Part shown: piece by piece, positions 9,340-36,404 of the stretch
How the letters are laid out: every line of letters begins with the position of its first letter
Numbering within the stretch: position 1 is the stretch's first letter
From: Promineifilum sp.
Lineage (GTDB): Bacteria > Chloroflexota > Anaerolineae > Promineifilales > Promineifilaceae
DNA length: 64,000 nucleotides
Assembly: GCA_017983515.1 (NCBI GenBank)
Contig: JAGOBF010000018.1
Coordinates: forward strand, 1-64,000
Direction of reading: 5' to 3'
Position numbers and translations under genes: made by a program
The notes under the pieces: model-generated
The model's input: only the letters and a program-made list of their open reading frames with translations
What the model was told of the DNA's origin: nothing
Databases searched by the model: none

Positions 9340-9353
9340 AATTACTATTCTCC

Positions 9354-9869: not shown

Positions 9870-9876
9870 GAGCCGG

Positions 9877-10759: not shown

Positions 10760-10767
10760 TAGTCCCC

Positions 10768-12105: not shown

Positions 12106-12185
12106 GTTATTTGTCCTTTATATGACCGGGGTTTCTTAACACGTGTGTGAGAATACGAGTCAGCAAACCCCTGTGATGGCGGTGA

Positions 12186-13097: not shown

Positions 13098-13121
13098 GAT
13101 TTCTCCAACGAGAGAAGAAAC

Positions 13122-13169
13122 CACAGATTACACTCAGTTCACGGATCGAAGAATAATTCTTAATCTGTG
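13122..13169. repeat. Palindromic intergenic element between the two transketolase genes
   Basis: CACAGATT (13122-13129) and AATCTGTG (13162-13169) form an inverted repeat. The loop contains a smaller hairpin AGAAT-A-ATTCT, and a partial copy CTGTGG follows near 13190. It resembles dispersed intergenic repeats built on (A)ATCTGTG units. No coding sequence is supported here. Confidence 0.5.
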
Positions 13170-13195
13170 AAATCTGGGCCGTCTGTGGAGCTTCT

Positions 13196-14053
<858 letters not shown>

Positions 14054-14096
14054 GTTTTTCTCTGAGGAACGGGGCTTCGCGGGAGTAGTCTTGTTC

Positions 14097-14915
14097 CTAA
14101 TCGTTGACTCGTCGGGTTTGCACGGCCGACACCGTCTTGAGTTCGTCCATGTGATGGCGATACCAGTTGACTCCCGCGTAATGGCTATTGAGGGCCGCCA
14201 CTTCCGGGTGTGATTTCAGAAAGCTTAGAATATCTTCCAGGCTAAACAACGGATCGATTTCGTATAGTGAGTCATAAATGGCGGCTATGAATCGGTAATC
14301 TTCTTCGTAGTCTATGGTCCAACGATGGCTCATGGAGTAGTCCAGTCCCGTGTCCCAGGTGACGTTACCGATGCGAAATCGGTCGGGATTTTCCCATAGG
14401 AAAGGCGTAGTATGCTCTCGTTCCAGCGGCCTCACGGCCTCGCGATGGGCGACCGTCAACGCCGCCATCGTCATGATCTCAACATCATTTCCATCGGGAT
14501 AGGTGGCCGGGTGAAGATTGCTGACGTAGTCGAAGCGGTCGATATGATCCAGATAATAAGTGATGACCCGGTCGATGACGCGCGGGTCGATCAGCGGGCA
14601 GTCGGAGGGGATCTTGATGACCGCCGACGCACCGTACCGCTTCCCGGCCTGATAATGGCGGTCGAGCAGGTCGTCGGCGTCCCCCCGATAGCACGGCCAG
14701 CCTTCGGCGCGGCACAGGGCGGCCAGCGGATCGTCGGCCGTCTGGGTGGTCGTCGCCACCACGACGGTTTCGACCCGTTGGGCGGCCAACACGCGTTCCA
14801 CCATGCGCGTCAGCAACGGCTGTCCTGCCAGAGGCAGCAGCACCTTGTCGGGCAAGCGCGTCGATCCGGTGCGGGCCTGGATGACGGTGACGATTCCGCC
14901 GCTAGGCTGGGTCAT
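14097..14915 (-). CDS. SpsF-like cytidylyltransferase
   Basis: 272 aa nucleotidyltransferase of the SpsF/acylneuraminate cytidylyltransferase family. The N-terminus TVIQARTGSTRLPDKVLLPL is the family signature and supplies the CTP-binding loop. IKIPSDCPLIDPRVID contains the metal-binding Asp. It would activate the nonulosonic acid made by the NeuB-like enzyme as a CMP-sugar. It overlaps the upstream glycosyltransferase-like gene by 14 bp, which suggests translational coupling. Confidence 0.87.
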   Translation of the reverse strand: MTQPSGGIVTVIQARTGSTRLPDKVLLPLAGQPLLTRMVERVLAAQRVETVVVATTTQTADDPLAALCRAEGWPCYRGDADDLLDRHYQAGKRYGASAVIKIPSDCPLIDPRVIDRVITYYLDHIDRFDYVSNLHPATYPDGNDVEIMTMAALTVAHREAVRPLEREHTTPFLWENPDRFRIGNVTWDTGLDYSMSHRWTIDYEEDYRFIAAIYDSLYEIDPLFSLEDILSFLKSHPEVAALNSHYAGVNWYRHHMDELKTVSAVQTRRVND

Positions 14916-15909
14916 GAGTCAGGAATTCCTCCCAGCGGACGGGTTCACCCAACAGGATGTGGCGACAGACGCGGGCGATATTCTGGCCGGATACGCCGCC
15001 GTTTTGCATCGGGGCCAGGCGCTTGAGCATTTCCAGATCGAAGTAGGAGTGCACTTCCTTATTGAGGGCGATACCGGTGTAGACAACCGTTGAGTATTGG
15101 CAGATGAGCGCCTCGCAATTGGCTATCATGTGATCAATATTGCCGTCGGTATAGATCGGCACCTCGCCCACGACCTCGCGTATTTCGCGGGTGGCTCGCT
15201 CGAATTTCTCATTGGGATGGAGCTTGAAAATGATGGGCCGGCCGGCGGCAATCTCGACGATCCGGCGCAGATATTTCTTGCGATTGTCAAACTTGTACGT
15301 CTCACGCGCGTCGGATGTCGCCACCAGCACGTAATCGCGCAAGGGAAAGTCATTGTCCAGATAAGCGGCGCAGTTGTCGTAGTTAGGGATGCCGGTGACG
15401 ACCAGCTTCTCCTGCTTGACGCCCTTACGGGTGAAGAAATCCCTGTACCCTTCGGAAGCGACGCAGAAATAGCGAAATTGATTCGACAAGCCGTTGGTTG
15501 ACGTGCTGGCGAGATAGCGCGGCAGCTTGAAGCGCCGCACCAGGTGGTACATAAACCCTTCGGGATCGGTCATGCCTTCCTGGATGAGGATGAACGGCTT
15601 GTCGCGCAGATTCTTGGGGACGTACAGATCGGTCGTCGCCACGTAGAGGTCGTACTGTCGGGCCTGACCCCGATAATCGATGGGCAGGTTATGCAGCTTC
15701 AGATAGGCGTCTGTTTGCCGGCGAAAATTGCCGCCCAGGATGGTGAAGTTGAGAAGGTCGCTATTACTTGCCAGAATGTCGTACAAGCCGTCAGAGTAGA
15801 AGGGACTGAACCAACAGTCGAATTCGTCCTGTAGGTGGCAGGCGACCGCATGCGTCATGCGCGTCATGTTCAGCGATCCGCCGATGAAGAGGATTCTCTT
15901 GCGTACCAT
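14902..15909 (-). CDS. GT-B-like glycosyltransferase or glycerophosphotransferase-like protein
   Basis: 335 aa. An N-terminal Rossmann-like start (KRILFIGGSLNMTRMTHAV) is followed by a C-terminal half with IIFKLHPNEKFERA and a late segment ALICQYSTVVYTGIALNKEVHSYFD. This pattern occurs in CDP-glycerol:poly(glycerophosphate) transferases and polysialyltransferase-like GT-B enzymes. Its gene overlaps the cytidylyltransferase gene, so it likely uses the CMP-sugar made by that enzyme. A -10 box TAAACT lies 9 nt before the ATG. Donor and acceptor are not evident. Confidence 0.6.
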   Translation of the reverse strand: MVRKRILFIGGSLNMTRMTHAVACHLQDEFDCWFSPFYSDGLYDILASNSDLLNFTILGGNFRRQTDAYLKLHNLPIDYRGQARQYDLYVATTDLYVPKNLRDKPFILIQEGMTDPEGFMYHLVRRFKLPRYLASTSTNGLSNQFRYFCVASEGYRDFFTRKGVKQEKLVVTGIPNYDNCAAYLDNDFPLRDYVLVATSDARETYKFDNRKKYLRRIVEIAAGRPIIFKLHPNEKFERATREIREVVGEVPIYTDGNIDHMIANCEALICQYSTVVYTGIALNKEVHSYFDLEMLKRLAPMQNGGVSGQNIARVCRHILLGEPVRWEEFLTHDPA

Positions 15910-15996
15910 AACCGCGTTAGTTTACACTCATGACGAGGGGATTCCAACCCAGCGCGCCGGCGCCTGGTTGCCTGAAGCTGACAGCACGGCCGCGTG

Positions 15997-16737
15997 CTAT
16001 ACCTCCGGTTGCGGGGCCGACGGCGTTTCCAGCGATTTCTGGTTGATGCGATAGAAGCCTTCGGCATAGGCAAAGCCAACTCGCTTACCTGCTTCGGCCG
16101 CCCATTCGCGGAGCATGTCGGCCGGATCCCATCCATTGAGTTGGCTGACGTGTCGCTTCAGTGCCTCTATCTTGAGATCGATCGTGTCGCTGATGTCGAC
16201 GAAGTAATTGACGCGCTCGCTGAAGGTGATGAAAACGTAATCGACCTTGTGGCCGGACAGTCCCTCGGCGGCTAAATCGGGGTAGAGCAGATCCATCTCG
16301 GCCGCGGGGAAGATGGCATCGAGGGCGGCCGTTCCGCCGGCGCGATGATCGGGATGGTTGATGTAATTGTCGCTGGGGAAGAAGTTGGTAGGGTCGGTGC
16401 ATACCACGGCATCTGGCCTGTAGTGGCGAATCAGGCGCACCAGATCCTTGCGCAACTCGAGCGTTGGTTGCAAAAACCCGTCGTGGTAGCCGAGGTACAC
16501 GCACTCCGCACCGGCGACTTCTCCGGCGGCCGTCTGTTCCGCGCGCCGAATTTCGGCCAGCTTTTCAGCGGTCATGCCGTCGTCGTGGCTGCCAACGTTG
16601 CCGTCGGTAATGAGCACGTAGATCACGCGACTGCCGGCCCGCGCCCACTTGGCGGCGGTTCCAGCCACGCCAAACTCAATATCGTCCGGATGGGCGAAGA
16701 TGAACATCGCCGTCTGGGGAATATATGCAGCAGTCAT
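15997..16737 (-). CDS. PIG-L family deacetylase
   Basis: 246 aa zinc-dependent N-deacetylase of the LmbE/PIG-L family. The metal site is visible as FAHPDDIEFG near the N-terminus and NHPDHRAGG in the middle. Members remove acetyl groups from GlcNAc-type sugars. It is the first gene of the minus-strand sugar operon and has GAGGT before its ATG. Deacetylation before re-acylation by the GNAT-like protein would make sense, but is inferred. Confidence 0.9.
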   Translation of the reverse strand: MTAAYIPQTAMFIFAHPDDIEFGVAGTAAKWARAGSRVIYVLITDGNVGSHDDGMTAEKLAEIRRAEQTAAGEVAGAECVYLGYHDGFLQPTLELRKDLVRLIRHYRPDAVVCTDPTNFFPSDNYINHPDHRAGGTAALDAIFPAAEMDLLYPDLAAEGLSGHKVDYVFITFSERVNYFVDISDTIDLKIEALKRHVSQLNGWDPADMLREWAAEAGKRVGFAYAEGFYRINQKSLETPSAPQPEV

Positions 16738-16874
16738 ATTTACCTCTCACAGAGGAGTTCGGCTCCACGAACGGAAACCGACCCGTCTCAATTCAGTATG
16801 ATGGACCGTGGATAATGCGCGATGATGCGGGCTCCGTCAAGCGAATCCCGTTATCTGACAGCCGGGCATTCTGA

Positions 16875-17726
16875 CTACGGAACCAGGGTAACCGTTCCAA
16901 ACAGCGACCGGTCAAACTCATTGATGCGATCCGGCTCCAGGGCGGCGAGTGCGGCATAGACGCGGGCAACGTCGGCCCGCAACCCGGCCACGTCTACGCT
17001 CCGGCACACGTCGGGCAGCGGATCGAGCCACTGGCGCACGCGCAACAGCATTTTGACCGCGCCGCGGTAATTGCCTTGCTCGATCTGGTAGTAGGCGATG
17101 CCGATCTGCAGGATGCCCCGGTAGAGATCGCGGCCGGCGCCTTCATCGACAACCCAAGCCTCCTCCAGCAAGTCGTGGGCTGGGTAATATTCACCCTGGT
17201 TGAACCGCTCGATACCTTGGCGGGCCAACGCGGCCAGCGGTTCGGCGCAGGCGGCACCGAGGGCCGTGTGGTCGGGGATGCGCGCGTAGCGTTGAAACAG
17301 GGCGGGCATGTCGGCCGTGAAGCGCGAGCGAGCCAGCACCACGTCTGCCCCAACGCTTTTGGCCGCGCCCATCGTGGCGACGTCCTGGTGCGAGCCAAAG
17401 CACATGACCGGGATGCGGCGAGTGGCGGCAGCCGACTTGAGAGCGGCGATCCATTCTCGCCAAGGGATGGCGGCATTGTTGAGGTCGAACAGCAGCAAGG
17501 CCGGTTGCCATAGGGTCACCTGCTCAAATAGGCGACCTTCACGCCCGCGCAGTAGCTCGCCGGGCGTCTCCGGTACGCGCTGGGGGACGAGCGAACCAAG
17601 CTGGTCGGCCGATTCGATCCAGATGATCCGGTAGCCGATGTGCTCAGCAACCTTGGCAATCCGCATCGTAAACATGAGGTCGGCGACGAAGGCGACGATC
17701 AGGGGCGTGGTGGCAGGATCAGTCAT
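16875..17726 (-). CDS. DUF309 domain protein with receiver-like N-terminal domain
   Basis: 283 aa. The N-terminal 120 residues have a response-regulator-like alternation (LIVAFVADLMFTMRIAKVAE, then ALLLFDLNNA and IPVMCFGSHQD) with an Asp where phosphorylated aspartates lie, but few other receiver hallmarks. The C-terminal part is a DUF309 helical domain (FNQGEYYPAHDLLEEAW, then YRGILQIGIAYYQIEQGNY). DUF309 has no established function. The gene stands alone, divergent from the GH31 gene. Confidence 0.75.
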   Translation of the reverse strand: MTDPATTPLIVAFVADLMFTMRIAKVAEHIGYRIIWIESADQLGSLVPQRVPETPGELLRGREGRLFEQVTLWQPALLLFDLNNAAIPWREWIAALKSAAATRRIPVMCFGSHQDVATMGAAKSVGADVVLARSRFTADMPALFQRYARIPDHTALGAACAEPLAALARQGIERFNQGEYYPAHDLLEEAWVVDEGAGRDLYRGILQIGIAYYQIEQGNYRGAVKMLLRVRQWLDPLPDVCRSVDVAGLRADVARVYAALAALEPDRINEFDRSLFGTVTLVP

Positions 17727-25947: not shown

Positions 25948-26487
25948 CTAAAGGATGGGGAGAGACGCGAGGAAAATTAAACCTTCGGACAACGGAAGGC
26001 GATAGGGCAGGTCCCATATTTGTAACATCAAGTAATCGGCGATGGCCCACAGACCGAAACAGCCGACGGCAAAAAGGACAATCGCCAGGGCTATGGCCAA
26101 TAGCAGGCACGTTTGGGCACAGCCAACCCCGCCTGCGGGCAGCGTCCGCACCTTAGAACCAGGCGCGTTGGGAATCGGTCGGGCGGGGTGGGGATCGACG
26201 TGCGAGCGCCCGGGTTCCTGCGTAATGACGCGCGGCCGATGACTGGATGGCTCCTGGTTGGGCCGTTCCCTGCGCCGCAGCACGACCGGCGTGCCGATGG
26301 CGCCTTCGCCGCGACAGCCATAGGCCGTGCATTTGTTGTCATTGGCCTGCCAACAGCGCACGTGATGGCGGCTGCCGTCGTCGGGACAGATAACGATCTC
26401 GTCACCGGCGGCGAACTCCTGTTTACAGAGGGCGCAGGTCTGCCCCAAAAACGTGGAGGTTTCGCCGATGTGATGGGCGCGAATCAT
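25948..26487 (-). CDS. Membrane-anchored RING-like (Prok-RING type) protein, putative E3
   Basis: 179 aa. The N-terminal binuclear treble-clef finger has C18-x2-C21-x12-C34-x2-D37-x4-H42-x2-C45-x7-C53-x4-C58. It aligns column by column with the finger of the neighbouring gene, but has Asp37 where a Cys zinc ligand would be. A basic/proline-rich linker (60-120) leads to a membrane helix at about 126-152, and the C-terminus is hydrophobic again. It is the last gene of the ubiquitin-like cassette. The likely role is a membrane-localised E3 or adaptor that recruits the E2. E3 activity is inferred from the fold and operon, not shown. Confidence 0.7.
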   Translation of the reverse strand: MIRAHHIGETSTFLGQTCALCKQEFAAGDEIVICPDDGSRHHVRCWQANDNKCTAYGCRGEGAIGTPVVLRRRERPNQEPSSHRPRVITQEPGRSHVDPHPARPIPNAPGSKVRTLPAGGVGCAQTCLLLAIALAIVLFAVGCFGLWAIADYLMLQIWDLPYRLPLSEGLIFLASLPIL

Positions 26488-26523
26488 TGGCTTTCGCTGG
26501 GGGCGATAAGACCCAGCCCGTTG

Positions 26524-26949
26524 CTAGGGATTGATCTTGATTTGATCGAGCAGCCAGCGCCAGAAGCGCTCGAAAAGCGTCATACTGCGCACCTGGCGGC
26601 GCTGCTCTTCCTTGAGCCGGCGATTGCGGGCGTTGGTGGAGGGGCGGCCGTTGGCGGAATGGGCCGGCAGGTCGGTGTATTTGACCTTGAGCACCGGCCG
26701 GGTATCGAGGCCGTGGACGTGGAACTTGGTGCTGCCACATCCTAGCACGGCGCACTTGGCGCCGCTCTGTTCCCAGCAGGCGCGATGATAGAGCGTGCCG
26801 CACTGGTCGCAGATGATAGGCACGAGCGCCGCGCCGTCGACGTGGTCCTCGACCGCGCTGCCGCATATCGGACACGACAAGCTCAACTGATTGGCTTCAG
26901 AGATGTCGTTGTCCGTGATGCGAATCAGGGGTAACTCTTGTTCTTGCAT
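26524..26949 (-). CDS. RING-like (Prok-RING type) protein, putative E3 ligase
   Basis: About 141 aa from ATG at 26949; an in-frame ATG at 27054 would add 35 residues of no clear fold, and neither has a strong ribosome-binding site. The N-terminus carries LIRITDNDISEA, a motif repeated in other products of this operon. The zinc finger is C26-x2-C29-x17-C47-x2-C50-x4-H55-x2-C58-x7-C66-x4-C71, the complete ligand set of a RING-like binuclear treble clef (CPIC, CDQCGTLYHRACW, CAVLGC). A basic helical C-terminus (RNRRLKEEQRRQVR; FERFWRWLLDQIK) follows. With E1, E2 and Ubl genes upstream, an E3 role is the best reading. Confidence 0.75.
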   Translation of the reverse strand: MQEQELPLIRITDNDISEANQLSLSCPICGSAVEDHVDGAALVPIICDQCGTLYHRACWEQSGAKCAVLGCGSTKFHVHGLDTRPVLKVKYTDLPAHSANGRPSTNARNRRLKEEQRRQVRSMTLFERFWRWLLDQIKINP

Positions 26950-27094
26950 GAATCCATACTCGGAAGCAGAAAATCGGCCGTTCCGATTGCCAAAATCGCC
27001 CGCTGATGTGGGGTGATGATCGCCTTCCGCTTCAAGATTCTGATTATACCTCATTTTCGGACTCTCGTTTCAAGCCGGCCGTTCTCTCAGACAG

Positions 27095-28165
27095 CTACCA
27101 GGAACCGTCCATCCAGGCCGGCCACAGAAAATCATAGCGATTGACCTTGGTGCGCTGGCGGTTCCAACAGAAAAAGCCGCTGGTGCGCGCGCGCGGATCG
27201 AGGACGTAGGCTACGTGCCAGAGCTGGGTGAAGAAGTTCTGATGAATGAACAAGTCCATCCCCGACAGGAAAATGCCGAAGCCGGGATGGGTATGGTACC
27301 AGCCGACGATGAAGGCGCTTTCGTCGGGGTAACGTTCCCAGAGTGTGTCGGTCATGTAGCGCCAACTTTCGGGCGTATAGGTCACGCTGGCCCCTTGCAT
27401 GACAGTATGTTGGGCAATGATGCTGTCGATGACGTGGACGACGTAGCGGCCGTCTGGCTGTTTCTCTGGTTGGCGGCCGACCATGACCCCGGCCACCTCG
27501 CGATCCAGACTACTGAGAGCGTGGGCCTGCATGGCCCGCAGCGGAGCTTCGTCGAGAAGTATGTCCACCGCCGCGCCGCTTGATTCGGCCAGAGGCAACC
27601 GCCCGCCGGCCACGCGCACGCGAGCCTGGCTGGGGATGATATGGGGCGGCACTGGCTTGGCGACGGTGATGGGGACCGGCTCGGCCGCTGGTTCGGGCGC
27701 AGCGGTCAGGGGCGGTTCGGGCTTGGCCGGCTCTATCAGCGGTTCATCCGCGTGTTCGGGCTGTGGGTCGTCCGACGCGGCTGCTTCCGCTGGGTCTTCA
27801 CTGGCCGCACTTTCGAGCGGCTCTGCGAGTCGTGGGGCTAACACGATGGCCTGATTCAGCCAGTCCTCGATCTCATCCGCAGCCTGGCCCTGGTCATCGA
27901 GGGCGGCGACGCGGACGATAACCTGCTCATCCCGGCGCAGGTCGAGGAGCGAAATAGCCTCATAAGCATCCCATACGTCGGCTTCCAGCGCCTCGGCATA
28001 AGCACTCAGCTCGGCCAGCGTGCAGGCCGCCAGGGGCTTAACCTTATCGCCGAGCGGAATTTTGTCGGCCGGCGCCAGGGTGACGACGGCCGTTACCGTC
28101 TCGGGCCGGCCGGGCAACGTTAGAGAGATTTGGGCCACGTAGGTGACGTTCGTCTTGTCGGTCAT
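27095..28165 (-). CDS. JAMM/JAB (MPN+) metalloprotease 2, soluble, putative deubiquitinase-like
   Basis: 356 aa from ATG at 28165 (MTDKTNV), just after the other JAMM gene. N-terminal about 110 residues form an alpha/beta domain of unknown function (ISLTLPGRPETVTAVVTL). A long Ala/Pro/Glu linker follows, then a C-terminal MPN+ domain. All JAMM ligands are present: Glu in SLDREVAGVMVG, then GWYHTHPGFGIFLSGMD giving H-x-H-P-x6-S-x2-D. Known JAMM enzymes cut isopeptide or C-terminal bonds of ubiquitin-like proteins. Here it most likely removes the cassette's Ubl from targets. There is no membrane segment. Confidence 0.88.
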   Translation of the reverse strand: MTDKTNVTYVAQISLTLPGRPETVTAVVTLAPADKIPLGDKVKPLAACTLAELSAYAEALEADVWDAYEAISLLDLRRDEQVIVRVAALDDQGQAADEIEDWLNQAIVLAPRLAEPLESAASEDPAEAAASDDPQPEHADEPLIEPAKPEPPLTAAPEPAAEPVPITVAKPVPPHIIPSQARVRVAGGRLPLAESSGAAVDILLDEAPLRAMQAHALSSLDREVAGVMVGRQPEKQPDGRYVVHVIDSIIAQHTVMQGASVTYTPESWRYMTDTLWERYPDESAFIVGWYHTHPGFGIFLSGMDLFIHQNFFTQLWHVAYVLDPRARTSGFFCWNRQRTKVNRYDFLWPAWMDGSW

Positions 28166-28170
28166 AATTT

Positions 28171-29433
28171 TTAGGGCTGCCCGGCATTCACCGGAGTCAG
28201 ATTGACGTTGACAATGCACGGGCTGCTGTTTGCCAGGCGGATATTATTCAAATCAACAGGTGACAGGCGCGCTTCATAGCTCCCGGCCGGAAATTCACTG
28301 GTTTCCCAATTGGCTAACAGACCAAGAGATGTATCGCGCCGCGAACGGTCGATCAGGTTCCACTCGGTATCGCCGGTCGGCCGGACTTCGATCTGGTAGC
28401 GGCGAGCCTCCGGATAGTCAGCCGTGCCGATGATTTGCAACGTCGAGCCCGCGGCATAAGCCTGGCCGTTCAGGGGCGTCAGAATGCGCAGACGCGGATC
28501 GGGGCAGGTGAGCGCGTTGCTATCGGCCAGCGACACCTGGGCCAGGTTAAGGACTGTCGTCTCCAGCAGGCTGACCCGTCTCTGAAGAGGAAGAACGCCG
28601 CCGACGATTAAAAAAAAAGACAGCATTAGCGCCGCTGCCGAAGCGGCCAGCCCCAACTCGCGGCCCGAAAAGCGCGGCCGTCCGCTGCGGGCCAATACCA
28701 CGCGGCTATCTGCATCGCTTGGCGTCTGCAATTCATACGGCTGATCCCAGACTGACGAGCGGACGACCCGCCAGGGGGTCTGAGTGTCTGGCTGCCGTTC
28801 TGGTAATTCATAGAAGCCGCCCAGGGGAGACAAGACGCCCCCCACCCAGCCGAAAAAGGCTGCCTCGTCGCGGATGGGATCAACGACCAGACCCACGTGC
28901 CACGGGAGAGTGAAAGCTGCCGAATGAACGACGACGTCGTCGCTCGAATAGAATACACCCAGATCGGGGTGAGTGTGGAACCAGCCGATGATGTCCAGAT
29001 TGCTGTAATGGGCAGTGCGGTCGCGGTGCAACTTCGACCATGAGTCGGCCGAGAAGGTGAAATGAACTGGCCCGTGGTCGGCGCTCGTTGCTGGCACAGC
29101 GGCCTTGACCTCGACGATCACGCTGTTCTTGTAGCGGTAGGTGTGGCCCAATAGCGCGCCGCCCAACTCGCACCTGGTATCGCTGCGACTGTGGGCGACG
29201 ACTTGCAGCAGGGCCGTCTGATGCATCAGGACGATCGGTTGGCCCTCGACCGGCGCGTCGCCGTGCGCCAGCCACTCTCCGGGTGGGGCGGGTGGTTGAC
29301 GGAAGGGCAGAGCCGCCATTGCCTCGCGGTGGGCGGCCGGCGTTTCCACGCGCACCGATTCGCCGCGCGTCGTTGCATCCGCCGGCGGGGGTGACGCTTT
29401 GTCGCGTTTATCCGAATTTGATGCCGAGGTCAT
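28171..29433 (-). CDS. JAMM/JAB metalloprotease 1 with membrane helix and external Ig-like domain
   Basis: 420 aa from ATG at 29433 (GAGG 6 nt upstream). The start lies inside the E2 gene, a 26-bp overlap. Layout: disordered N-terminus (1-55); MPN+ domain with the JAMM set Glu89 (CELGGALLGH), His153, His155, Ser163, Asp166 (GWFHTHPDLGVFYSSDD); a linker; one membrane helix at about 259-282; a short coiled stretch; and a C-terminal beta-sandwich (about 314-415, LRILTPLNGQAYAAGSTLQI) that would lie outside the membrane. A JAMM peptidase tethered inside with an external sensor-like domain is unusual. It probably deconjugates the Ubl near the membrane. Confidence 0.88.
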   Translation of the reverse strand: MTSASNSDKRDKASPPPADATTRGESVRVETPAAHREAMAALPFRQPPAPPGEWLAHGDAPVEGQPIVLMHQTALLQVVAHSRSDTRCELGGALLGHTYRYKNSVIVEVKAAVPATSADHGPVHFTFSADSWSKLHRDRTAHYSNLDIIGWFHTHPDLGVFYSSDDVVVHSAAFTLPWHVGLVVDPIRDEAAFFGWVGGVLSPLGGFYELPERQPDTQTPWRVVRSSVWDQPYELQTPSDADSRVVLARSGRPRFSGRELGLAASAAALMLSFFLIVGGVLPLQRRVSLLETTVLNLAQVSLADSNALTCPDPRLRILTPLNGQAYAAGSTLQIIGTADYPEARRYQIEVRPTGDTEWNLIDRSRRDTSLGLLANWETSEFPAGSYEARLSPVDLNNIRLANSSPCIVNVNLTPVNAGQP

Positions 29434-29941
29434 CTGAATCCTCGTCGCCAATGACGATCATGTCGGCCACGGACTGGCCCTTGAGTTCCCGGCGATCGAT
29501 GGGGAAGAGCGATTTGCGCTGGATAGCCCAGGCGGCCGCCTTGGAATTCATCGGGTCGCGTGGTTCATAGTTCTTGTACTGGATCATCTCTCCAAGGGTC
29601 AGGAGTAGTTCGTCCAGCGTTTTGGCCGGCCACCATGCGCCGATACACACCGCGCCGGTGACGTGGATATTGGGATGAAAGATGGGCGACACCCATTTGA
29701 GCTGGGGCTGTTTCAACGGGTATTCCGCGTGCAGATAGATTGTCACATCGTGCTGCTCACGGTAGATAGGTTGATTGGCCCCGGAGATGCCCTCTACACC
29801 CTTGCAGGTGAAGCGGATCAGGTATTTCTCCGGCGGGTCGCCCTCAGTCCTGATGATATGAATAAAATCGCTCCGATTCGCCAGATCGCGCACGCGCTGA
29901 TAGTCGTTGCGCAATCGGGTTTCACGAATGTCAAAGGACAT
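29408..29941 (-). CDS. E2 ubiquitin-conjugating enzyme-like (UBC fold)
   Basis: 177 aa. A canonical UBC core: the N-terminal helix (RLRNDYQRVRDLANRS), beta meander, the P-x(n)-P motif YPLKQPQLKWVSPIFHPN with His89-Pro90-Asn91, the catalytic Cys99 eight residues later (GAVCIGAWWPAKTL), and a crossover helix (LDELLLTLGEMIQ). The Asn of HPN, which stabilises the oxyanion in eukaryotic E2s, is retained. The C-terminal tail MIVIGDEDSDDLG is hydrophobic then acidic. AGGAG precedes the ATG. It would take the Ubl from the E1 and pass it to targets with the RING-like proteins. Confidence 0.93.
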   Translation of the reverse strand: MSFDIRETRLRNDYQRVRDLANRSDFIHIIRTEGDPPEKYLIRFTCKGVEGISGANQPIYREQHDVTIYLHAEYPLKQPQLKWVSPIFHPNIHVTGAVCIGAWWPAKTLDELLLTLGEMIQYKNYEPRDPMNSKAAAWAIQRKSLFPIDRRELKGQSVADMIVIGDEDSDDLGIKFG

Positions 29942-29968
29942 GATTGCTCCTGCTTCGATTCATGTTCA

Positions 29969-30017
29969 AATGCCCTTCGCGGCGCTTACCGAAACCGGTG
30001 AACTCCGGAAGGGCATT
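29969..30017 (-). promoter_or_regulatory. Hairpin in the Ubl-E2 intercistronic gap
   Basis: AATGCCCTTC (29969-29978) and GAAGGGCATT (30008-30017) form a perfect 10-bp stem whose loop has a further weak stem. It lies just upstream of the E2 ribosome-binding site in the only long gap (250 bp) of the cassette. It has no T-run. It may be an RNA processing or stability element, or may adjust E2 translation. Confidence 0.45.
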
Positions 30018-30191
30018 CTCAGTTACACAACTAAAGATAGACCCGGCAGGCCGGCGAGAAACATACCGGTCAGACGGAATGTCGCACAACGACGGGTCAG
30101 GTCTTTTCTTATCCAATCCACTTAAGTCGGATGAAGGCGCTGGAAACTGTGGACAGAATGATTGCCGCAGTCCCACCTAACACTTCGTTCG

Positions 30192-30458
30192 TCAGCCGGC
30201 CGTTACTTCGGGGAACAGGCTGAGGATGTCGTCTTCCTTCACACTGGCATCCCGCAACGATTCCTCGTCGCCGAGACGCTTGCCGGAAGAGCGATGATCC
30301 AACCGGTAGGTGATCGGATTCGCGCCCTGCGTCGTCGGCAGACCCATCTTGCTCACTAGAGCGGGGATCAACCGGCGCATCGGAACGTCGTCCGGCAACT
30401 CGACCGGGGTCTTCTTGGATCCGGTGGGATCATAAATGATTACTTTTGTACTTGCCAT
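30192..30458 (-). CDS. Ubiquitin-like protein (YukD/ubiquitin fold) with C-terminal glycine
   Basis: 88 aa from ATG at 30458 (MASTKVII), with GGAGG 11 nt upstream. An in-frame ATG at 30476 would use that same GGAGG as coding sequence and is less likely. The pattern VIIYDPTGSKKTPVELPDD, a central helix (MRRLIPALVSKMGL), YRLDHRSSGKRLGDEESL and VKEDDILSLFPEV is that of YukD-type ubiquitin-like proteins. The chain ends in Thr-Ala-Gly, so it has the C-terminal glycine needed for adenylation by an E1 but no Gly-Gly and no extension to be cut off. It lies between E1 and E2 genes and is the evident modifier. Confidence 0.88.
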   Translation of the reverse strand: MASTKVIIYDPTGSKKTPVELPDDVPMRRLIPALVSKMGLPTTQGANPITYRLDHRSSGKRLGDEESLRDASVKEDDILSLFPEVTAG

Positions 30459-30568
30459 CTTCTTAAAAGCCTCCATCAATATTGTCGTAACACATTACGC
30501 AAAAAGGTTGTTGCGGTTGCAGCCGCTTGATCCGGTTCCAGCCGGGCGGGCCGCCGCATGCTCTGAGA

Positions 30569-31750
30569 TCAAGCGAACTGCAAAAAGGTCGCCTTGTCTC
30601 CCGTTAACTCATAATAAACCCGTTCGCTGCCGTTGCGCGCCCGGATGATGCCGAGCGGCGGCACGTCGATCTCGGCGAACGTGCGCTCCAGGAACGTCTC
30701 TTCGCCGGTGATGCGATGGGTCATGCGCATCTCGCGCTTGGCGCCACAGACTGGGCAGACGGCCGCATCCTCGTAAAGGCGAGCCATCCGCTTAAAGATC
30801 GGCTCTTCATTGCCGCAAGAGTCGCAGACCATTGCGATGACCAGTTCGCTGTCGAACTCCAACACGGCCTCCGGGCCGAGCCGTTCTCGAGCCGTCGCCA
30901 GCAGGTCGGCCAGTGTGGTTTCGGCGGCCGAGGCCTCTGGCAGCTCGATAATCGGCTCCAGTCGGGAATGACTCATGCAAAACTCTTTCACCGGATATTC
31001 CGTCAGATAGATGTCGTTTGTTAAGCCGTTGATCATCAATGCCTTACCGGGCAGCACTTCCATGTTGTGTATCAGCTTTAGTGCCTCTTGGGTCTGGAAA
31101 GCGGCTACGATCGACGCGCTGGTGGGCGTCGTCGGCACTTTGCCCATCAGGATATCCTGCCGCGCAAGAAGCGGGCAGGAGTAGCGCAGATTGATGATCT
31201 GATAGTCCAGGTCGGTCAGGGTGCATTCGTAGCACGCGCCCTCGCCGGGGCGAAAGACGCGCACGATGCCCATCAACTCCTGAATGGCCCCATCAACCCA
31301 CGGCCGATCGATGGCCCAGCTGAAGCGATTGATCGACAGGCGCGCCTCGCGATTGTCGAGGCAACCGACGATGGCATCGACATGGCGAAAGACGCCCAGC
31401 CCCATCTCATAATTAATGTCCCCGTGCCAAGCTTTGACCTTGACGTCGGGGTTGATAGCCTTGACCGCCTCGGCCGCGGCATCGACCTTGCGCCGGCCGC
31501 GGTCGGTCGTTCGAAAGAGGATCGACCGGCTGAGATTGCTGTCCTCGATGGTGTCGAAGTCGGCGATCAGGATGTTGCCGATGCCCATCAGGGCCAGATT
31601 CTTGATGACCTCGTTGCCCAACGCGCCCGCGCCGATGACCAGCACGGTCGCTTTGCGCACAACTTCCTGCTGCCACCAACTGATGTAGCCGAAGGTGTGA
31701 TAGCGGTCGCTATCGGGGTCGGTGATAATTATCGTTTCCGTATCCGTCAT
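30569..31750 (-). CDS. E1-like ubiquitin-activating enzyme (ThiF/UBA family)
   Basis: 393 aa. The adenylation domain shows VLVIGAGALGNEVIKNL (ATP loop, 36-52), IADFDTIEDSNLSRS with Asp64/Asp66, Asn72 and Arg75, Lys88 and Asp132 (CLDNREAR). CYEC (173/176) matches the first half of the E1 zinc site. Cys192 in YSCPLLA aligns with the catalytic Cys region of UBA3-type E1s. A C-terminal domain (about 270-393) adds CDSC (309/312) and CPVC (332/335). GAGGAG precedes the ATG. It would adenylate the Ubl glycine and load it onto the E2. The long C-terminal part sets it apart from MoeB/ThiF. Confidence 0.92.
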   Translation of the reverse strand: MTDTETIIITDPDSDRYHTFGYISWWQQEVVRKATVLVIGAGALGNEVIKNLALMGIGNILIADFDTIEDSNLSRSILFRTTDRGRRKVDAAAEAVKAINPDVKVKAWHGDINYEMGLGVFRHVDAIVGCLDNREARLSINRFSWAIDRPWVDGAIQELMGIVRVFRPGEGACYECTLTDLDYQIINLRYSCPLLARQDILMGKVPTTPTSASIVAAFQTQEALKLIHNMEVLPGKALMINGLTNDIYLTEYPVKEFCMSHSRLEPIIELPEASAAETTLADLLATARERLGPEAVLEFDSELVIAMVCDSCGNEEPIFKRMARLYEDAAVCPVCGAKREMRMTHRITGEETFLERTFAEIDVPPLGIIRARNGSERVYYELTGDKATFLQFA

Positions 31751-31771
31751 TGTCTCCTCAATTCACCCTCG

Positions 31772-32419
31772 TCAGACCGGTTTGGTCAACGTGGCGATGA
31801 AGTTTTGCGTCACAATTAATTGGCCTTCGGGCGCATAGGCGATGCCGATGCCCACGTGGGTCCACACCGGATTCAGGATGTTGCCCCGGTGGTTTGTCAG
31901 CCGCCGCGGCTGGTTCATGAAAGCCGCGTGCACTTCCTGTGGGCCCCGCTCGCCATGACTGGCCGGGCCATAAATGACGCCGATGTTCTCGCCGCAGGCC
32001 AGATAGCTGATACCCTGACGATCCAGCCGATTGGCGACGGTGACGCCCTCCGGCGTTGCGTGGGCTACATAGCGGCGCTCGAGCATGTCGTTGGCATGGA
32101 GCCGGGCTGTTCGCGCCAGCTGCGGATGCCATTGGAGTGGCCCACGCCCCAACCACTTGGGAACATGCTCAGCCCGCGCCTGATTCACCATGATAAAGAC
32201 CATTTCTTCCAGCGGTCGGACGACTTCCTCCCCTGCGGGTTGGAAGGCGGCGATGTCGTCGGCCGTGATCAACAACGTGTGGCCTCGATGAGTATCGCGC
32301 GCTGGAGGAGCCTCGGGTACATCCTCGGTGCGGATCGTCAACACCGGCGGGGCCGTCACGCGGCCGACCTGTGACTCGATGTCTTCTGCGGTTACCCGCA
32401 AGGGATCGGCGTCGGTCAT
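31772..32419 (-). CDS. CAP/SCP domain protein without signal peptide
   Basis: 215 aa. Residues about 70-212 form a CAP (SCP/PR-1, YkwD-like) domain: VNQARAEHVPKWLGRGPLQW, ARLHANDMLERRYVAHATPEG, GENIGVIYG and TNHRGNILNPVWTHVGIGIAY. The N-terminal 65 residues have no signal peptide. Instead they carry three copies of a short motif (PLRVTAEDIES, VLTIRTEDVPEA, TLLITADDIAAF). CAP proteins are normally secreted, so a cytoplasmic one inside a ubiquitin-like operon is odd. Its N-terminal motif array may bind the Ubl or other cassette proteins. Function is unknown. Confidence 0.8.
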   Translation of the reverse strand: MTDADPLRVTAEDIESQVGRVTAPPVLTIRTEDVPEAPPARDTHRGHTLLITADDIAAFQPAGEEVVRPLEEMVFIMVNQARAEHVPKWLGRGPLQWHPQLARTARLHANDMLERRYVAHATPEGVTVANRLDRQGISYLACGENIGVIYGPASHGERGPQEVHAAFMNQPRRLTNHRGNILNPVWTHVGIGIAYAPEGQLIVTQNFIATLTKPV

Positions 32420-32430
32420 CTACTGTTTGC

Positions 32431-33657
32431 TTAAGCCTTCAGCGTCCGGTAGAAGGGCAGCGTAAAATGTGTCCGGTCGGCATTCAGCGTGATCGATTTG
32501 CGTTCGACCTCTCCACCATAATCGCGCGGCCAGGTGACGTCCACGTCGTAAGTCAGCCCGGCATCGATTTGCACCGGCAGTTCGCAAACGAATTCGCCGT
32601 CCTTGTTGGTCGTGCCGGCCACGTAGCGGCGAATGCCCCGCGAACTAACGCGTACTTGCAGCCCGTATAACCCCGGCCCGTCCGGCTGATCCTGGACGAC
32701 GACGCGGAGCTTGGTCGACTTCATCGCCGCGCGGCCTCGGCCGCCGCGCCGAACGGCCGAGGCGGCGGCCGACGTGTTGGCTCCGGCGGTGGCGTTCGGC
32801 ATGACGACGTTCGACGGTCGCGCGGGAGCCGGACGCTGGGTACTGGGCGGAGCGGGAGGCACGGCCTCCGATAGATCGATGCGTAACGGCGGTTGGGTGA
32901 TGGGCGAGGTTGGCCCGGTCGTCGCGCTGCCGGGGGCCAGATCGTCGGCGGTGATGCTGAGCGGGCTGCCCGGAGCCGGCGCCGCGGGGCGCTCCATTTC
33001 ATCCGGCGAGACCTCGATGCCGGTATTATACTCCGGATAGCGTTCCGGAATCGGCGTCCGATAGTAGGGCGGCAGCGGCGCGATAGTGCCATCCGGTTGC
33101 AGTGTATTCAGGGATGGCGGGCCGCCGGCGGCGTGGGCCAGCTTGCGGCCCAGCTTGTCGCGCTCGGTAGCGCTGCGCTGCACTTCTTGGCGGATAAAGT
33201 AAGCCGCCCGCTTGAGCACCTGACCGGCCGGGCTGAAGGGGTCGGGCGGAGAGGCCGGGTCGAGGCGGTCGAGCAGGAAATCGGCCCGCCACGCGTAGGC
33301 GGCCACAATGAGCGCCAGCCAGGCCGGAGCGGGTTGTTCCGTGGGCGGGGTGGTTCCGGCCGAGGTGGCCGCCAGAACGGCCACTTCTTCGTTGTCGGCC
33401 AAGCCGCTTTCTTGCAATAGGCCATAGAGCGCCAGCCGTGTGGCCTGTTCAGACTCCACGGCCTGGGCAAAGCTGTTACGTGTCGGCTCATCGAGTACGT
33501 TGGCCGCCAGCAGGAGCGCGCGGGCACGGGACTCGGCCAGCGCTTCGCCGTTGGGGTTCAGGTCGCGGTTTAGCCAGTCCAGCAAACGGCCGGCAAAGCT
33601 CATGAGTTGAGGCTTGCCGGGGAAAGACTGTATTTGCTTCTGGACAGTTTCGTGCAT
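32431..33657 (-). CDS. Cassette protein with helical N-terminus, Pro-rich linker and beta-sandwich C-terminus
   Basis: 408 aa, family not recognised. Residues 1-180 are helical (FAGRLLDWLNRDLN, ARALLLAANVLDEPTRNSF, KRAAYFIRQEVQRSATERDK). About 190-310 is a disordered Pro/Ala/Thr-rich linker that contains one copy of the operon motif (PLSITADDLAPG). The C-terminal 95 residues look like a carboxypeptidase-regulatory or transthyretin-like sandwich (TKLRVVVQDQPDGPGLYGLQ; GTTNKDGEFVCELPV; HFTLPFYRTLKA). No membrane segment. AAGGAG precedes the ATG. It lies between the GTPase and CAP genes and may be a scaffold; the role is unknown. Confidence 0.6.
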   Translation of the reverse strand: MHETVQKQIQSFPGKPQLMSFAGRLLDWLNRDLNPNGEALAESRARALLLAANVLDEPTRNSFAQAVESEQATRLALYGLLQESGLADNEEVAVLAATSAGTTPPTEQPAPAWLALIVAAYAWRADFLLDRLDPASPPDPFSPAGQVLKRAAYFIRQEVQRSATERDKLGRKLAHAAGGPPSLNTLQPDGTIAPLPPYYRTPIPERYPEYNTGIEVSPDEMERPAAPAPGSPLSITADDLAPGSATTGPTSPITQPPLRIDLSEAVPPAPPSTQRPAPARPSNVVMPNATAGANTSAAASAVRRGGRGRAAMKSTKLRVVVQDQPDGPGLYGLQVRVSSRGIRRYVAGTTNKDGEFVCELPVQIDAGLTYDVDVTWPRDYGGEVERKSITLNADRTHFTLPFYRTLKA

Positions 33658-33685
33658 CGCAGACTCCTTGAGAGCGCAGCCGGCA

Positions 33686-33742
33686 GACGACGGCCGGCAA
33701 ATCCACGGTTTGTTACTTCGTCGTGGATGGCCGTCCGTCGCC
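33686..33742 (-). promoter_or_regulatory. Imperfect hairpin between GTPase gene and next cistron
   Basis: ACGGCC...ATCCACG pairs with CGTGGATGGCCGT with a 5-nt bulge, in the 98-bp gap after the dynamin-like gene. No clear T-run follows on the minus strand. Possibly a partial terminator or RNA stability element. Confidence 0.35.
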
Positions 33743-33755
33743 CGCCGTCGGTCGT

Positions 33756-36404
33756 CTAAATCGCTAGCCCGGTCTCCAGATGATGCAGGCCGTCCCAGAC
33801 GCGCATCAACTCTTCCATGTCGGAGACAGACTCCATATCGACTTCCAGCGCCTTGCGCAATTCCGGCTTGTGGAGATTACGGTCGTGCTGGCGGAGCATG
33901 GGCTTGATGAGCAGATTATTGAAATCGCGCTCGGTCTTGATGGCCTCCAGCCAGAACAGCCGGCGCAAGCGAGGTAACAGGTCGTCGTCGCTGAAAAGGT
34001 CGTCGATGATGGCGGCGAAAATGCGGTTGACCTTAACGGCTACGTTGTCCAGCAGATCGGCGTAACTTGGCTCCAGGTCGGCCGCCACCGGGGCCGCTTT
34101 GCCCTCGCCCAGGAAGCTAATGTCGATGTCGGGCATGACCTCACCGGCCGGCGTGTCGAGAATATTAATCTCAATCGATTCTTCGGCCGGTTGGGTGGCT
34201 GCCTGGGCATTGTTGTTGTTAGCCGACAGTTGCGGCATCGACGCTGCGATCTCGCGGGCCACGCGTTCCGGGCCGTAGAGAGCCACGTCGAGCAAACGCT
34301 CGTTGGTCGGCAGCGCCAGCTCCGCTTCGCCCGCGAAGAGACGCGAATGAACCGATCGATCGGTGCGCATCAGCTCATACATCGTCGCTTGCTGGCAGGT
34401 GTAGCGGAAGCTGCGCCCAATGCGGTTGATGAGCGTGCGATAGGCGTCGGACAAGGGCACGGCGTTTTCGACCTCTCCGGGGATGATGTAGGTGTACTCC
34501 TGGGCATAGGCGGCGCGTTCCAGACGCGAGAAAATCTCGTGCGCTTCCAGGGTGCGATTTAGTTCGTCGGCCATGATATCGGCCGCTTCGGGCATAAACT
34601 TGGACACGGCGTCCTGCATGACCAGTTCGACCTGGAAGAGGATGCGCTTGATCGGCACTTCGATGCCGCTGGTGCCCCAGATAAGGTTGTCGTAGGTGAC
34701 ATCGCGGCCGTCCCAATATTCGGTGCCGTAGTTATCCAGCAGCATTTCGACTTCGCGCTGGACGGCGTCCTGGACCATGCCCTTGATGCCGTTGAGCGTC
34801 GGCCGCAGCAGTTGGCGGAAGCGCTCGTCGCTGTTCGTCCGGCTGCTCAGCTCCAGCAGTGCGTTATGGAAGGCGCGTGGCAGTTCCTTTTGCTGGCGGT
34901 TGAGTACGTTCTCGTAGCGCCGCTCCTGTAACTGCTCCCAACTGGTGGAGAAGGGCGGCTGCACGCCGCGGGCCGCCAGCTGCTTCTCATAGTAGAAGCG
35001 CAGGGCTTGCAGGGCATTACGAGTGCGGGTGGCCGCCTCGCGCAGCTGGCTGCGAACGCGCTCGTGCTGGATGAAGTGGATCAGGCTCTCGCGCAGCAGC
35101 GGCACTTCGCTCAGCTTGAGCAATGCTTCCTTGGTCTCCGGTTCCAGGGGGTCCTTGGTCGGGACTGTGCCCATCTGATCCTTGAAGACCTTCAGGATGC
35201 GCTCGGTTTCGCTGGCGAACTCTTCCGGCGCGTGCTCCGGGTCCTGCACATAGAGGGCCGAGGGAGCCATAATGAGAAAGTAGGGCCGGTTATGGCCGCG
35301 ATTGCTGTAACGCTCCCAATAGTTAGGGGCGATGTAGCGGGTGACGTCCTTGACTTCCAGTTCGGCTTCGGGCAGGCCGGAATTGAGGCGATCAAACGCC
35401 TGCCGGACGTTAGCCCCATTGACGGCCAGGAAAATCTTCGATGCGGCTTCGTCCAGATCGCCGCCGCTCAGGCCGAAGAGGCGGTTTTCCTTGATCCAGT
35501 TGACGGCCGACAAGGACTTCATCTCGTCGACGCGCTGCCGCCCAGCGTCGGTGACCAGCACGACCATGGCATCCTCGCGCTTCATTTCTTCGAGGGTAAT
35601 GGCCTCATGCAAGCGCATCCCCGCGCCAAGGCCCGGTACGTCGACGATGCGCAGGTAGCCGTTCATCAGCAAGTTGGGCACGCCCGCTTTGGGCTGAATG
35701 CGAAAGGTAGCCGATTTGATCAGGCGAATCTGACGTTGCTGACTGCCCTTGAAGCTGTCCTCGCGCAGGTGCTTGAGCGATTCTTCGTTCTCCAGAACGA
35801 GGCTGGCCGGCGCCGGTACGCCGTCCTTGTACAAATTTTTATTGTTTTCGTAGGAGTCGATGCAGTCGAGGAGGATATCGAGATATTCATCGCGCTCCGT
35901 CTTGGCCTGATCCTTGCGGGATTCTTCCAGGGCCTCGATGTCCTTGCGCGCCTGCTCACGCTCGCCACTGTTGGTGATGTCGAAGCCGTCGATCTCCGCC
36001 AATTGGCATAGGCGGCGGACGCGCTCGGCGAACTCTTCCTTGCTCCAATAGCTCAGCACGAGTGATTCGGCCTCGCCTTCGGCGGCCTGCTCGATATATA
36101 CGATGGTGCCGGTGACGGCCGTCACTGCGCCCGTCGGCAGCAGGTTGCGGCCGAGAAGGGCGTTGATGAGCGTGCTCTTGCCCACGCCCGTCCCACCAAA
36201 GAACACGAGGGTGTAGGTGCGCTGGGCCAGAATCTTTTGGGCTTCGTCGATGCTGAATTGGGCCTGGGGAACAGCCCGGATCAGATAATCCCGGGTGCGG
36301 TCAATCGTTTGCTGTAGATCGACCCATTGTTCTACCTGGGCGGGATTGATGAAAGGGAGCTCCGCTAGGGATGCTCGTAGGGAATCATTATCATTCTTGC
36401 TCAT
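33756..36404 (-). CDS. Dynamin-like large GTPase
   Basis: 882 aa from ATG at 36404 (MSKNDNDS), with AGAAGGAA upstream. The N-terminal GTPase domain has the P-loop VFFGGTGVGKSTLINALLG (about residues 68-86), a G2 threonine in AVTGT and the G3 motif RIVDVPGLGAG near 255. No standard NKxD is evident (FLAVNGAN may replace it). The remaining 550 residues are helical with several charged heptad-like stretches, as in bacterial dynamin-like proteins. No membrane helix is visible, but such proteins often bind membranes through a paddle. It is the first gene of the cassette and may bring the conjugation machinery to membranes. Confidence 0.8.
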   Translation of the reverse strand: MSKNDNDSLRASLAELPFINPAQVEQWVDLQQTIDRTRDYLIRAVPQAQFSIDEAQKILAQRTYTLVFFGGTGVGKSTLINALLGRNLLPTGAVTAVTGTIVYIEQAAEGEAESLVLSYWSKEEFAERVRRLCQLAEIDGFDITNSGEREQARKDIEALEESRKDQAKTERDEYLDILLDCIDSYENNKNLYKDGVPAPASLVLENEESLKHLREDSFKGSQQRQIRLIKSATFRIQPKAGVPNLLMNGYLRIVDVPGLGAGMRLHEAITLEEMKREDAMVVLVTDAGRQRVDEMKSLSAVNWIKENRLFGLSGGDLDEAASKIFLAVNGANVRQAFDRLNSGLPEAELEVKDVTRYIAPNYWERYSNRGHNRPYFLIMAPSALYVQDPEHAPEEFASETERILKVFKDQMGTVPTKDPLEPETKEALLKLSEVPLLRESLIHFIQHERVRSQLREAATRTRNALQALRFYYEKQLAARGVQPPFSTSWEQLQERRYENVLNRQQKELPRAFHNALLELSSRTNSDERFRQLLRPTLNGIKGMVQDAVQREVEMLLDNYGTEYWDGRDVTYDNLIWGTSGIEVPIKRILFQVELVMQDAVSKFMPEAADIMADELNRTLEAHEIFSRLERAAYAQEYTYIIPGEVENAVPLSDAYRTLINRIGRSFRYTCQQATMYELMRTDRSVHSRLFAGEAELALPTNERLLDVALYGPERVAREIAASMPQLSANNNNAQAATQPAEESIEINILDTPAGEVMPDIDISFLGEGKAAPVAADLEPSYADLLDNVAVKVNRIFAAIIDDLFSDDDLLPRLRRLFWLEAIKTERDFNNLLIKPMLRQHDRNLHKPELRKALEVDMESVSDMEELMRVWDGLHHLETGLAI

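What the first reader, a model, noticed from the sequence alone, without database searches (positions are those of the whole stretch)
25948..36404. Ten-gene bacterial ubiquitin-like conjugation cassette with E1, E2, Ubl, two JAMMs, two RING-like proteins and a dynamin-like GTPase
Seen: consecutive same-strand genes encode a Ubl ending in Gly, an E1 with ATP loop and candidate catalytic Cys192, an E2 with HPN and Cys99, two intact JAMM sites and two RING-like fingers. Established: each family has known roles in ubiquitin conjugation or removal, and bacterial Ubl-E1-E2-JAB(-RING) operons have been noted by comparative genomics; four-gene Bil systems conjugate a Ubl in phage defence. Inference: this is a full cascade with E3-like members, and the added GTPase, CAP and scaffold-like proteins suggest a membrane-related pathway not matched by the four-gene Bil layout.
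Basis: partly seen in the sequence, partly recalled or inferred. Interest (0 to 1): 0.95.

Follow-up and report, generated by a model that had tools for sequence, protein, structure and literature searches.

The report
Bacterial ubiquitin-like tagging gene cluster
An uncultured bacterial family carries, in nearly every genome, a full set of genes to attach a ubiquitin-like tag to its own molecules and take it off again, beside a membrane-remodelling-type GTPase and without any proteasome, so the tag probably does something other than mark proteins for the best-known shredder.

Summary
Ten intact same-strand genes encode a dynamin-like GTPase (DYN), an unknown protein (SCA), a CAP-domain protein, E1, a YukD-family Ubl, E2, two JAMMs and two Prok-RING_1 proteins. 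The window lies in Promineifilum (Chloroflexota).

E1, E2 and DYN are single-copy and occur in 49, 47 and 48 of 52 genomes of the family, and in all 17 high-quality ones. E1 and E2 are neighbours in 40 of 41 testable genomes. CAP and RING2 are optional. Catalytic residues are invariant. The Ubl tail PEVTAG is invariant, and three precursors carry extra residues after the Gly. No proteasome gene was found in 52 genomes. This near-universal, syntenic distribution argues against phage defence and T7SS roles.

The conjugation core (E1-RING-Ubl-E2-JAB) is a known predicted kind, also present in other Anaerolineae (as Ubl-E2 fusions) and scattered MAGs. New here: the DYN-SCA(-CAP) module, whose DYN and SCA orthologues were found only in this family among 249 class genomes, and a hxITxxDh linear motif shared by SCA, CAP and RING1, far above background.

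Most likely a proteasome-independent, membrane-associated Ubl pathway acting on or with the GTPase. The cascade is well supported; the membrane role is inferred.

The parts
33756..36404 (-). DYN: dynamin-like GTPase, 882-890 aa
   Evidence: Pfam Dynamin_N 2.1e-12; orthologue in 48/52 family genomes, single full-length copy; full orthologue not seen outside the family in 249 class genomes
32431..33657 (-). SCA: helical N-terminal domain (about 1-175), disordered linker with hxITxxDh motif (residues 233-240), C-terminal CnaB2/transthyretin-like beta-sandwich (about 312-403)
   Evidence: No PDB sequence match; AF2 pLDDT about 90 in both domains; Foldseek 8bdw E=1.4e-4; family-restricted
31772..32419 (-). 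CAP-domain protein without predicted TM segment; N-terminus has three tandem copies of the shared motif (two strict, one relaxed); optional gene
   Evidence: Pfam CAP 1.3e-13; motif residues 7-14, 27-34, 49-56; absent from many relatives; no TM
30569..31750 (-). E1, single adenylation domain, catalytic Cys192, C-terminal extension of about 130 aa with CxxC pairs in many but not all relatives
   Evidence: ThiF 4.4e-52; best PDB matches UBA7/UBA1 adenylation domain 4e-32; Cys192 34/34
30192..30458 (-). YukD-family Ubl ending PEVTAG (ORF open from 30479)
   Evidence: PF08817 2.2e-9; tail invariant in 28 family sequences, three with 1-7 extra residues
29408..29941 (-). E2 with HPN and Cys99, AWWPAKTL loop
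   Evidence: UQ_con 1.8e-14; closest PDB matches are eukaryotic ubiquitin E2s, 1fxt 3.6e-13
28171..29433 (-). JAB1: JAMM protease, one TM segment (residues 268-286 of the 426-aa ORF), C-terminal beta-rich tail
   Evidence: PF01398/PF14464 about 1e-8; JAMM 23/24, miss is a truncated contig; TM in 23 of 25
27095..28165 (-). JAB2: N-terminal domain, low-complexity linker, C-terminal JAMM protease
   Evidence: PF01398 1.5e-9; JAMM 29/30, miss is a truncated contig
26524..26949 (-). RING1: C4HC3 Prok-RING_1 (C61 C64 C82 C85 H90 C93 C101 C106, numbered in the 176-aa ORF), two motif copies, C-terminal amphipathic helix
   Evidence: PF14446 2.2e-9; ligands 29/29; model matches RING E3 domains; muH 0.63
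25948..26487 (-). RING2: Prok-RING_1 with Asp37 in place of the fourth Cys, one TM segment (128-146); optional gene
   Evidence: PF14446 1e-10; 30/30 with C/D, 1/30 with all Cys; TM in all 29 relatives

Best explanation
A complete, reversible ubiquitin-like conjugation pathway that is part of the ordinary equipment of the Promineifilaceae. E1 adenylates the C-terminal Gly of the YukD-like Ubl and takes it on Cys192, passes it to E2 Cys99, and RING1 (with RING2 at the membrane where present) promotes transfer to targets. JAB1, anchored in the membrane, and JAB2 remove it and trim the precursors that carry extra residues. Targets are probably at the inner face of the membrane; the dynamin-like GTPase and its partner SCA (and CAP) are the most likely substrate, reader or effector, tethered to RING1 through a shared hxITxxDh motif that may bind the Ubl as a SIM-like motif. 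The modification does not feed a 20S or HslV proteasome. Shown: genes, motifs, conservation, synteny, absence of proteasome genes. Inferred: every catalytic step, the membrane site, the role of the GTPase and the motif.
For: Families above cut-off. Catalytic residues invariant. Ubl tail TAG invariant with occasional propeptides; TAG likewise in 35 Ubls of other lineages and at 28 Ubl-E2 fusion junctions. Same order in most family loci. E1/E2/DYN single-copy in 49/47/48 of 52 genomes, 17/17 in high-quality ones. E1-E2 adjacent in 40/41, DYN-E1 in 23/28 on one contig. Core order E1-RING-Ubl-E2-JAB kept in other lineages. Top matches of the RING1 model are nearly all RING/U-box-type domains. Proteasome family absent in 52 genomes, found in 10 of 14 controls. 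DYN and SCA co-occur only with this operon in the class. Motif 2-9 per 1000 aa in SCA, CAP, RING1 against 0.24 in 340 proteins. TM segments.
Against: No biochemistry. RING1 structural matches are weak (Foldseek E 0.03, Z about 5-6.5) and the fold alone does not prove E3 activity; Prok-RING_1 is also found in proteins outside such operons. DYN moves away from the operon in some genomes (for example genus g22), so its link could be loose. CAP and RING2 are dispensable. The Ubl has one terminal Gly, not GlyGly, and B. subtilis YukD is reported not to be conjugated (PMC1779556). The motif's role is untested. Most genomes are MAGs. ATP-dependent proteases other than the proteasome were not examined, so degradation is not excluded.
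Confidence: 0.6

Rival explanations
1. Antiphage defence: like Bil and CBASS Cap2/Cap3, the pathway tags phage proteins or an immune effector, with the dynamin-like GTPase as a membrane-acting effector.
For: Known bacterial Ubl cascades act mainly in phage defence (PMC12687455); related tri-ligase systems sit in predicted conflict systems (PMC7159879); weak PADLOC LeoBC/LeoA hits for DYN, limited mainly to the P-loop region.
Against: Near-universal, single-copy and syntenic between the same flanking genes, whereas defence systems are usually patchy and mobile; Ubl 77-97% identical across the family; no operon protein beyond generic E1/JAB similarity and the DYN P-loop matches PADLOC.
Confidence: 0.15
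2. The YukD-like Ubl has a non-covalent role, as in T7SS/ESX secretion, and the E1/E2 genes serve another substrate or sulfur chemistry.
For: The Ubl belongs to the YukD family; B. subtilis YukD is reported not conjugated (PMC1779556).
Against: No T7SS genes in the operon; WXG100 proteins in only 21 of 52 family genomes; invariant terminal Gly with propeptides; Ubl-E2 fusions in relatives; E2 and RING have no place in ThiS/MoaD sulfur transfer (established knowledge).
Confidence: 0.06
3. A conjugation pathway for degradation by a non-proteasomal protease (FtsH, Lon, Clp), that is, membrane-protein quality control; the dynamin-like GTPase is a neighbour rather than part of it.
For: Membrane-anchored RING2 and JAB1; FtsH-linked Ubl systems proposed in PMC7159879; DYN unlinked in some genomes.
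Against: No protease other than the JAMMs in the conserved operon; DYN and SCA share the phylogenetic distribution of the operon and SCA shares the motif with RING1.
Confidence: 0.15

Closest known systems
Predicted bacterial tri-ligase Ubl systems with RING and YukD-like Ubl (Burroughs, Iyer, Aravind 2011; not held in the library, known here through citing papers and memory)
   Same: E1, E2, RING, JAB and a YukD-like Ubl in one operon
   Different: DYN, SCA and CAP genes, paired RINGs, family-wide core status and shared linear motif; whether that paper shows this layout could not be read
Ubl-conjugation module of FtsH-ternary vWA-MoxR systems (PMC7159879)
   Same: E1, RING E3, E2, JAB; Ubl-E2 fusions like those in Anaerolineae relatives
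   Different: Here Ubl and E2 are separate; no vWA, MoxR, FtsH, EAD1 or caspase gene in the operon
Caldiarchaeum subterraneum ubiquitin operon (PMC5654768)
   Same: Ubl precursor, E1, E2, small RING protein, JAMM protease; reconstituted in vitro
   Different: di-Gly ubiquitin there, single-Gly YukD-like Ubl here; no dynamin gene named there; two JAMMs and two RINGs here
Bil (BilABCD) and Bub systems (PMC11354881, PMC12687455)
   Same: Ubl, E1, E2, JAMM in one operon
   Different: Bil: tandem Ubl, two-domain E1, CEHH E2, no RING; phage defence

Membership tests
Prokaryotic tri-ligase Ubl conjugation systems (E1-E2-RING-JAB-Ubl) | All five components encoded together with intact active sites | tested here: met
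Prokaryotic tri-ligase Ubl conjugation systems (E1-E2-RING-JAB-Ubl) | Covalent conjugation of the Ubl | not testable with these tools
   Needs biochemistry
YukD family Ubl | PF08817 match above cut-off | tested here: met
   38.4 bits against 27
T7SS/ESX YukD | Linked WXG100 proteins and an FtsK-like ATPase | tested here: not met
   None in the operon; WXG100 in 21/52 genomes
Bil (BilABCD) | Tandem-Ubl BilA, E1 with inactive plus active adenylation domains, CEHH-type E2 | tested here: not met
   Single Ubl domain, 393-aa E1 with one ThiF domain, HPN-type E2; Bil features from PMC11354881
CBASS type II Cap2/Cap3 | E1-E2 fusion with a CD-NTase gene | tested here: not met
   Separate E1 and E2; no CD-NTase among the operon genes
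FtsH-ternary vWA-MoxR Ubl systems | Ubl-E2 fusion with vWA, MoxR and FtsH components | tested here: not met
   fusion seen only in other lineages
RING E3 ligases | Eight zinc ligands in RING-type order (C4HC3) | tested here: met
   29/29 in RING1; PF14446 above cut-off
RING E3 ligases | RING cross-brace fold | tested here: inconclusive
   Top model matches are nearly all RING/U-box domains but with modest scores: Foldseek E 0.03, Z up to 6.5
RING E3 ligases | Stimulates E2~Ubl transfer | not testable with these tools
   Needs discharge assay
Dynamin superfamily | Dynamin_N GTPase domain | tested here: met
   47.9 bits against 27
Dynamin superfamily | Membrane remodelling by GTP-driven assembly | not testable with these tools
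   Needs biochemistry

The most novel reading that the evidence does not exclude
A bacterial housekeeping Ubl pathway that controls membrane remodelling: the Ubl is conjugated to a dynamin-like GTPase, its scaffold or membrane components, and is read through a SIM-like linear motif shared by SCA, CAP and RING1. This would be the first non-defence, proteasome-independent E1-E2-RING pathway in bacteria and the first prokaryotic SIM-type reader.
Probability: 0.2. Interest if true: 0.95.

Novelty: new variant of a known kind. Interest (0 to 1): 0.74.

Why it matters
The experimentally characterised bacterial Ubl cascades named in the papers read here lack RING E3s and act mainly in phage defence. 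Here a whole uncultured family keeps a complete, eukaryote-like cascade with RINGs as near-core genes, with no proteasome and a dynamin-like GTPase alongside. If it works as predicted, it gives a bacterial model for non-degradative ubiquitin-type signalling at membranes and makes the question of what ubiquitin-like tagging does without a proteasome directly testable in a reconstituted system.

Tried and rejected
Defence filing by PADLOC: only generic E1/JAB similarity and a local P-loop match for DYN. PDB sequence matches for RING1 and SCA: none significant; structure models used instead. For SCA the Foldseek list was filled by the C-terminal beta-sandwich, so its N-terminal helical domain remains barely tested. 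Burroughs 2011 (PMC5938088) is not held. Text searches for a published link between such operons and dynamin found none, which is weak evidence because most subscription papers are missing. The motif was looked for in seven loci of the other lineages and not found in several copies in any operon protein there. G076 Prok-RING_1 loci (L067, L068) have no operon homologues by tblastn. The E1 C-terminal extension sits where eukaryotic E1s have their ubiquitin-fold domain, but its fold was not tested.
Full report
Observation. The ten ORFs exist, are intact and run on the minus strand from about 36404 to 25948. Pfam assigns nine of them above gathering thresholds: Dynamin_N, CAP, ThiF, YukD, UQ_con, two JAB, two Prok-RING_1; the tenth, SCA, matches nothing. 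Genes are tightly packed, several with gaps under 40 nt, and E2 and JAB1 overlap. Comparison with relatives moves some starts downstream: DYN 36404, Ubl about 30458, JAB1 29433, JAB2 28165, RING1 26949.

Where it is. The window lies in a 2.8-Mb genome of about 69% completeness.

Conservation. In 30-odd loci of the family the order DYN-SCA-(CAP)-E1-Ubl-E2-JAB1-JAB2-RING1-(RING2), or the part of it that the contig holds, recurs, often followed by the same M32 peptidase and CBS-domain genes. E1, E2 and DYN are found in 49, 47 and 48 of 52 genomes and in all 17 genomes at least 90% complete with at most 5% contamination. E1 and E2 are adjacent in 40 of 41 genomes where both lie on one contig; DYN and E1 in 23 of 28. 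In some genomes, for instance G020, G034 and G037, parts lie apart or on different contigs, yet all are retained; DYN stays next to SCA in G028 and G034. CAP and RING2 are missing in many loci, so eight genes form the core. DYN and SCA orthologues occur in 14 of 249 class genomes, all in this family, apart from two remote DYN relatives of 28-31% identity.

Active sites. E1 Cys192 is conserved in 34 of 34 sequences, E2 HPN and Cys in all 43 (the one regex miss, L042, reads VCVGAWW), JAB1 and JAB2 JAMM motifs in all but one truncated sequence each, RING1 ligands in 29 of 29. RING2 has Asp at the fourth ligand in 29 of 30; Asp can bind zinc in RINGs (Rbx1, from general knowledge). Both RINGs are C4HC3 with a longer spacing in the last pair, which is what a review reports for prokaryotic RINGs (PMC11354881). 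The E2 profile finds eukaryotic ubiquitin E2s first (1fxt, 3.6e-13); the E1 profile finds the adenylation domains of UBA7 and UBA1 (4e-32).

Ubl tail. All 28 family Ubls compared carry PEVTAG; in three the Gly is followed by A, RS or QGRRA. Precursor tails after a fixed Gly are what a processed conjugated Ubl shows, as in Caldiarchaeum, whose JAMM protease trims the pro-ubiquitin (PMC5654768). This is inference from sequence for the present case.

Relatives outside the family. An E2 profile scan of GTDB contigs found 141 relatives, of which the best 80 were kept. In Anaerolineales-type genomes the operon is E1 (with an N-terminal GntR-like helix-turn-helix in the two read in full), a membrane protein ending in a RING, a Ubl-E2 fusion, a second Ubl and a JAB. 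The fusion junction reads TAD[IV]TAG followed by a linker of about 7-15 residues in 28 cases, and the free Ubl ends in TAG in 34 of 35. A third set, in MAGs labelled Desantisbacteria, Marinifilum and Nitrospira, shows E1-RING-Ubl-E2-JAB-JAB or parts of it. So E1, RING, Ubl, E2 and JAB travel together across lineages, and Ubl and E2 are fused in one of them. Across a phylum-wide sample, however, only 14 of 400 genomes have such an E2.

RING and SCA structures. The RING1 model is confident over the finger (pLDDT 78-94 by blocks for residues 61-110). Its 50 best Foldseek matches are almost all RING E3 domains, though with weak E-values (0.03 and up); VIA-align gives Z up to 6.5 to RING/U-box domains. 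Middling Z can be a common arrangement, but ligand pattern, Pfam family and gene context agree. SCA has a helical N-terminal domain, a disordered middle and a CnaB2/transthyretin-like C-terminal domain.

Shared linear motif. SCA, CAP and RING1 are unrelated but share a short motif, hydrophobic-x-I/V-T-x-x-D-hydrophobic, mostly in parts predicted or expected to be unstructured: three copies in CAP, one strict plus weaker ones in SCA, two in RING1. Its frequency is 0.24 per 1000 residues in 340 proteins sampled from a related genome, where one protein has two copies, against about 2.5, 9.3 and 5.7 in window SCA, CAP and RING1. Across relatives, mean counts exceed composition shuffles by more than tenfold. 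The motif was noticed in these sequences before it was counted, so part of the excess reflects that choice, and relatives are not independent; yet recurrence in three unrelated proteins of one operon stands. Hydrophobic beta-type residues followed by acids recall SUMO-interacting motifs; a 2025 review notes that none of the recently found prokaryotic systems shares the SIM-binding groove (PMC12687455). That the motif binds the Ubl is a guess; it could equally bind SCA, DYN or another component.

Membrane context. JAB1 has one TM segment in nearly all relatives and RING2 in all; RING1 ends in an amphipathic helix (muH 0.63); DYN is dynamin-like. In the second lineage the RING protein also looks membrane-embedded. 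This suggests a membrane site but does not show it.

What it is not. No proteasome-family gene (20S or HslV) was found in any of 52 family genomes, while the same search found it in 10 of 14 control genomes. T7SS marker WXG100 proteins occur in only 21 of 52, so the YukD-like Ubl is not tied to that system. The distribution is that of a core pathway, not of a mobile defence island. It is not Bil: Bil has a tandem Ubl, a two-domain E1 and a CEHH E2 (PMC11354881).

Verdict. A real, conserved, complete Ubl conjugation and deconjugation system of a known predicted kind, in a new variant with a dynamin-like module and a shared linear motif. Confidence is about 0.85 that it conjugates its Ubl with RING help, about 0.4 that the GTPase module is its target or effector at the membrane.

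Noticed in passing
L066:8094-9827, L060:9918-11657: E1 proteins of the second lineage carry an N-terminal GntR-like winged helix-turn-helix, suggesting the activating enzyme also binds DNA or regulates its own operon.
   Followed up: partly
L066:6329-7246, L060:7712-8959 and 26 further loci: Ubl-E2 gene fusions with conserved TADITAG junction next to a second free Ubl; not known whether the fused Ubl is released by JAB or acts in place.
   Followed up: partly
L115:9974-13057: In an archaeal MAG (labelled Euryarchaeota) a related E2 sits next to a MoxR-type AAA ATPase and a likely vWA protein, without E1, Ubl or JAB found within 10 kb.
   Followed up: no
L114, L117, L119, L120: Operon copies in MAGs labelled Nitrospira, Desantisbacteria, Marinifilum and unclassified all lie beside a pdxJ-like gene; the labels may hide one source lineage or a transferred block.
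   Followed up: no
L120:6990-7286: Ubl with a long tail after the Gly (VVAG-HGVQIDRLK), another candidate precursor.
   Followed up: no
L067:9512-10687: G076 has further Prok-RING_1 proteins, one with many TM segments, unrelated to this operon.
   Followed up: no
window 29942-30191: A 250-nt gap between Ubl and E2, the longest inside the operon, with no predicted function.
   Followed up: no
window 8431-17726: Minus-strand block that looks like surface sugar (NeuB-type nonulosonic acid) biosynthesis.
   Followed up: no
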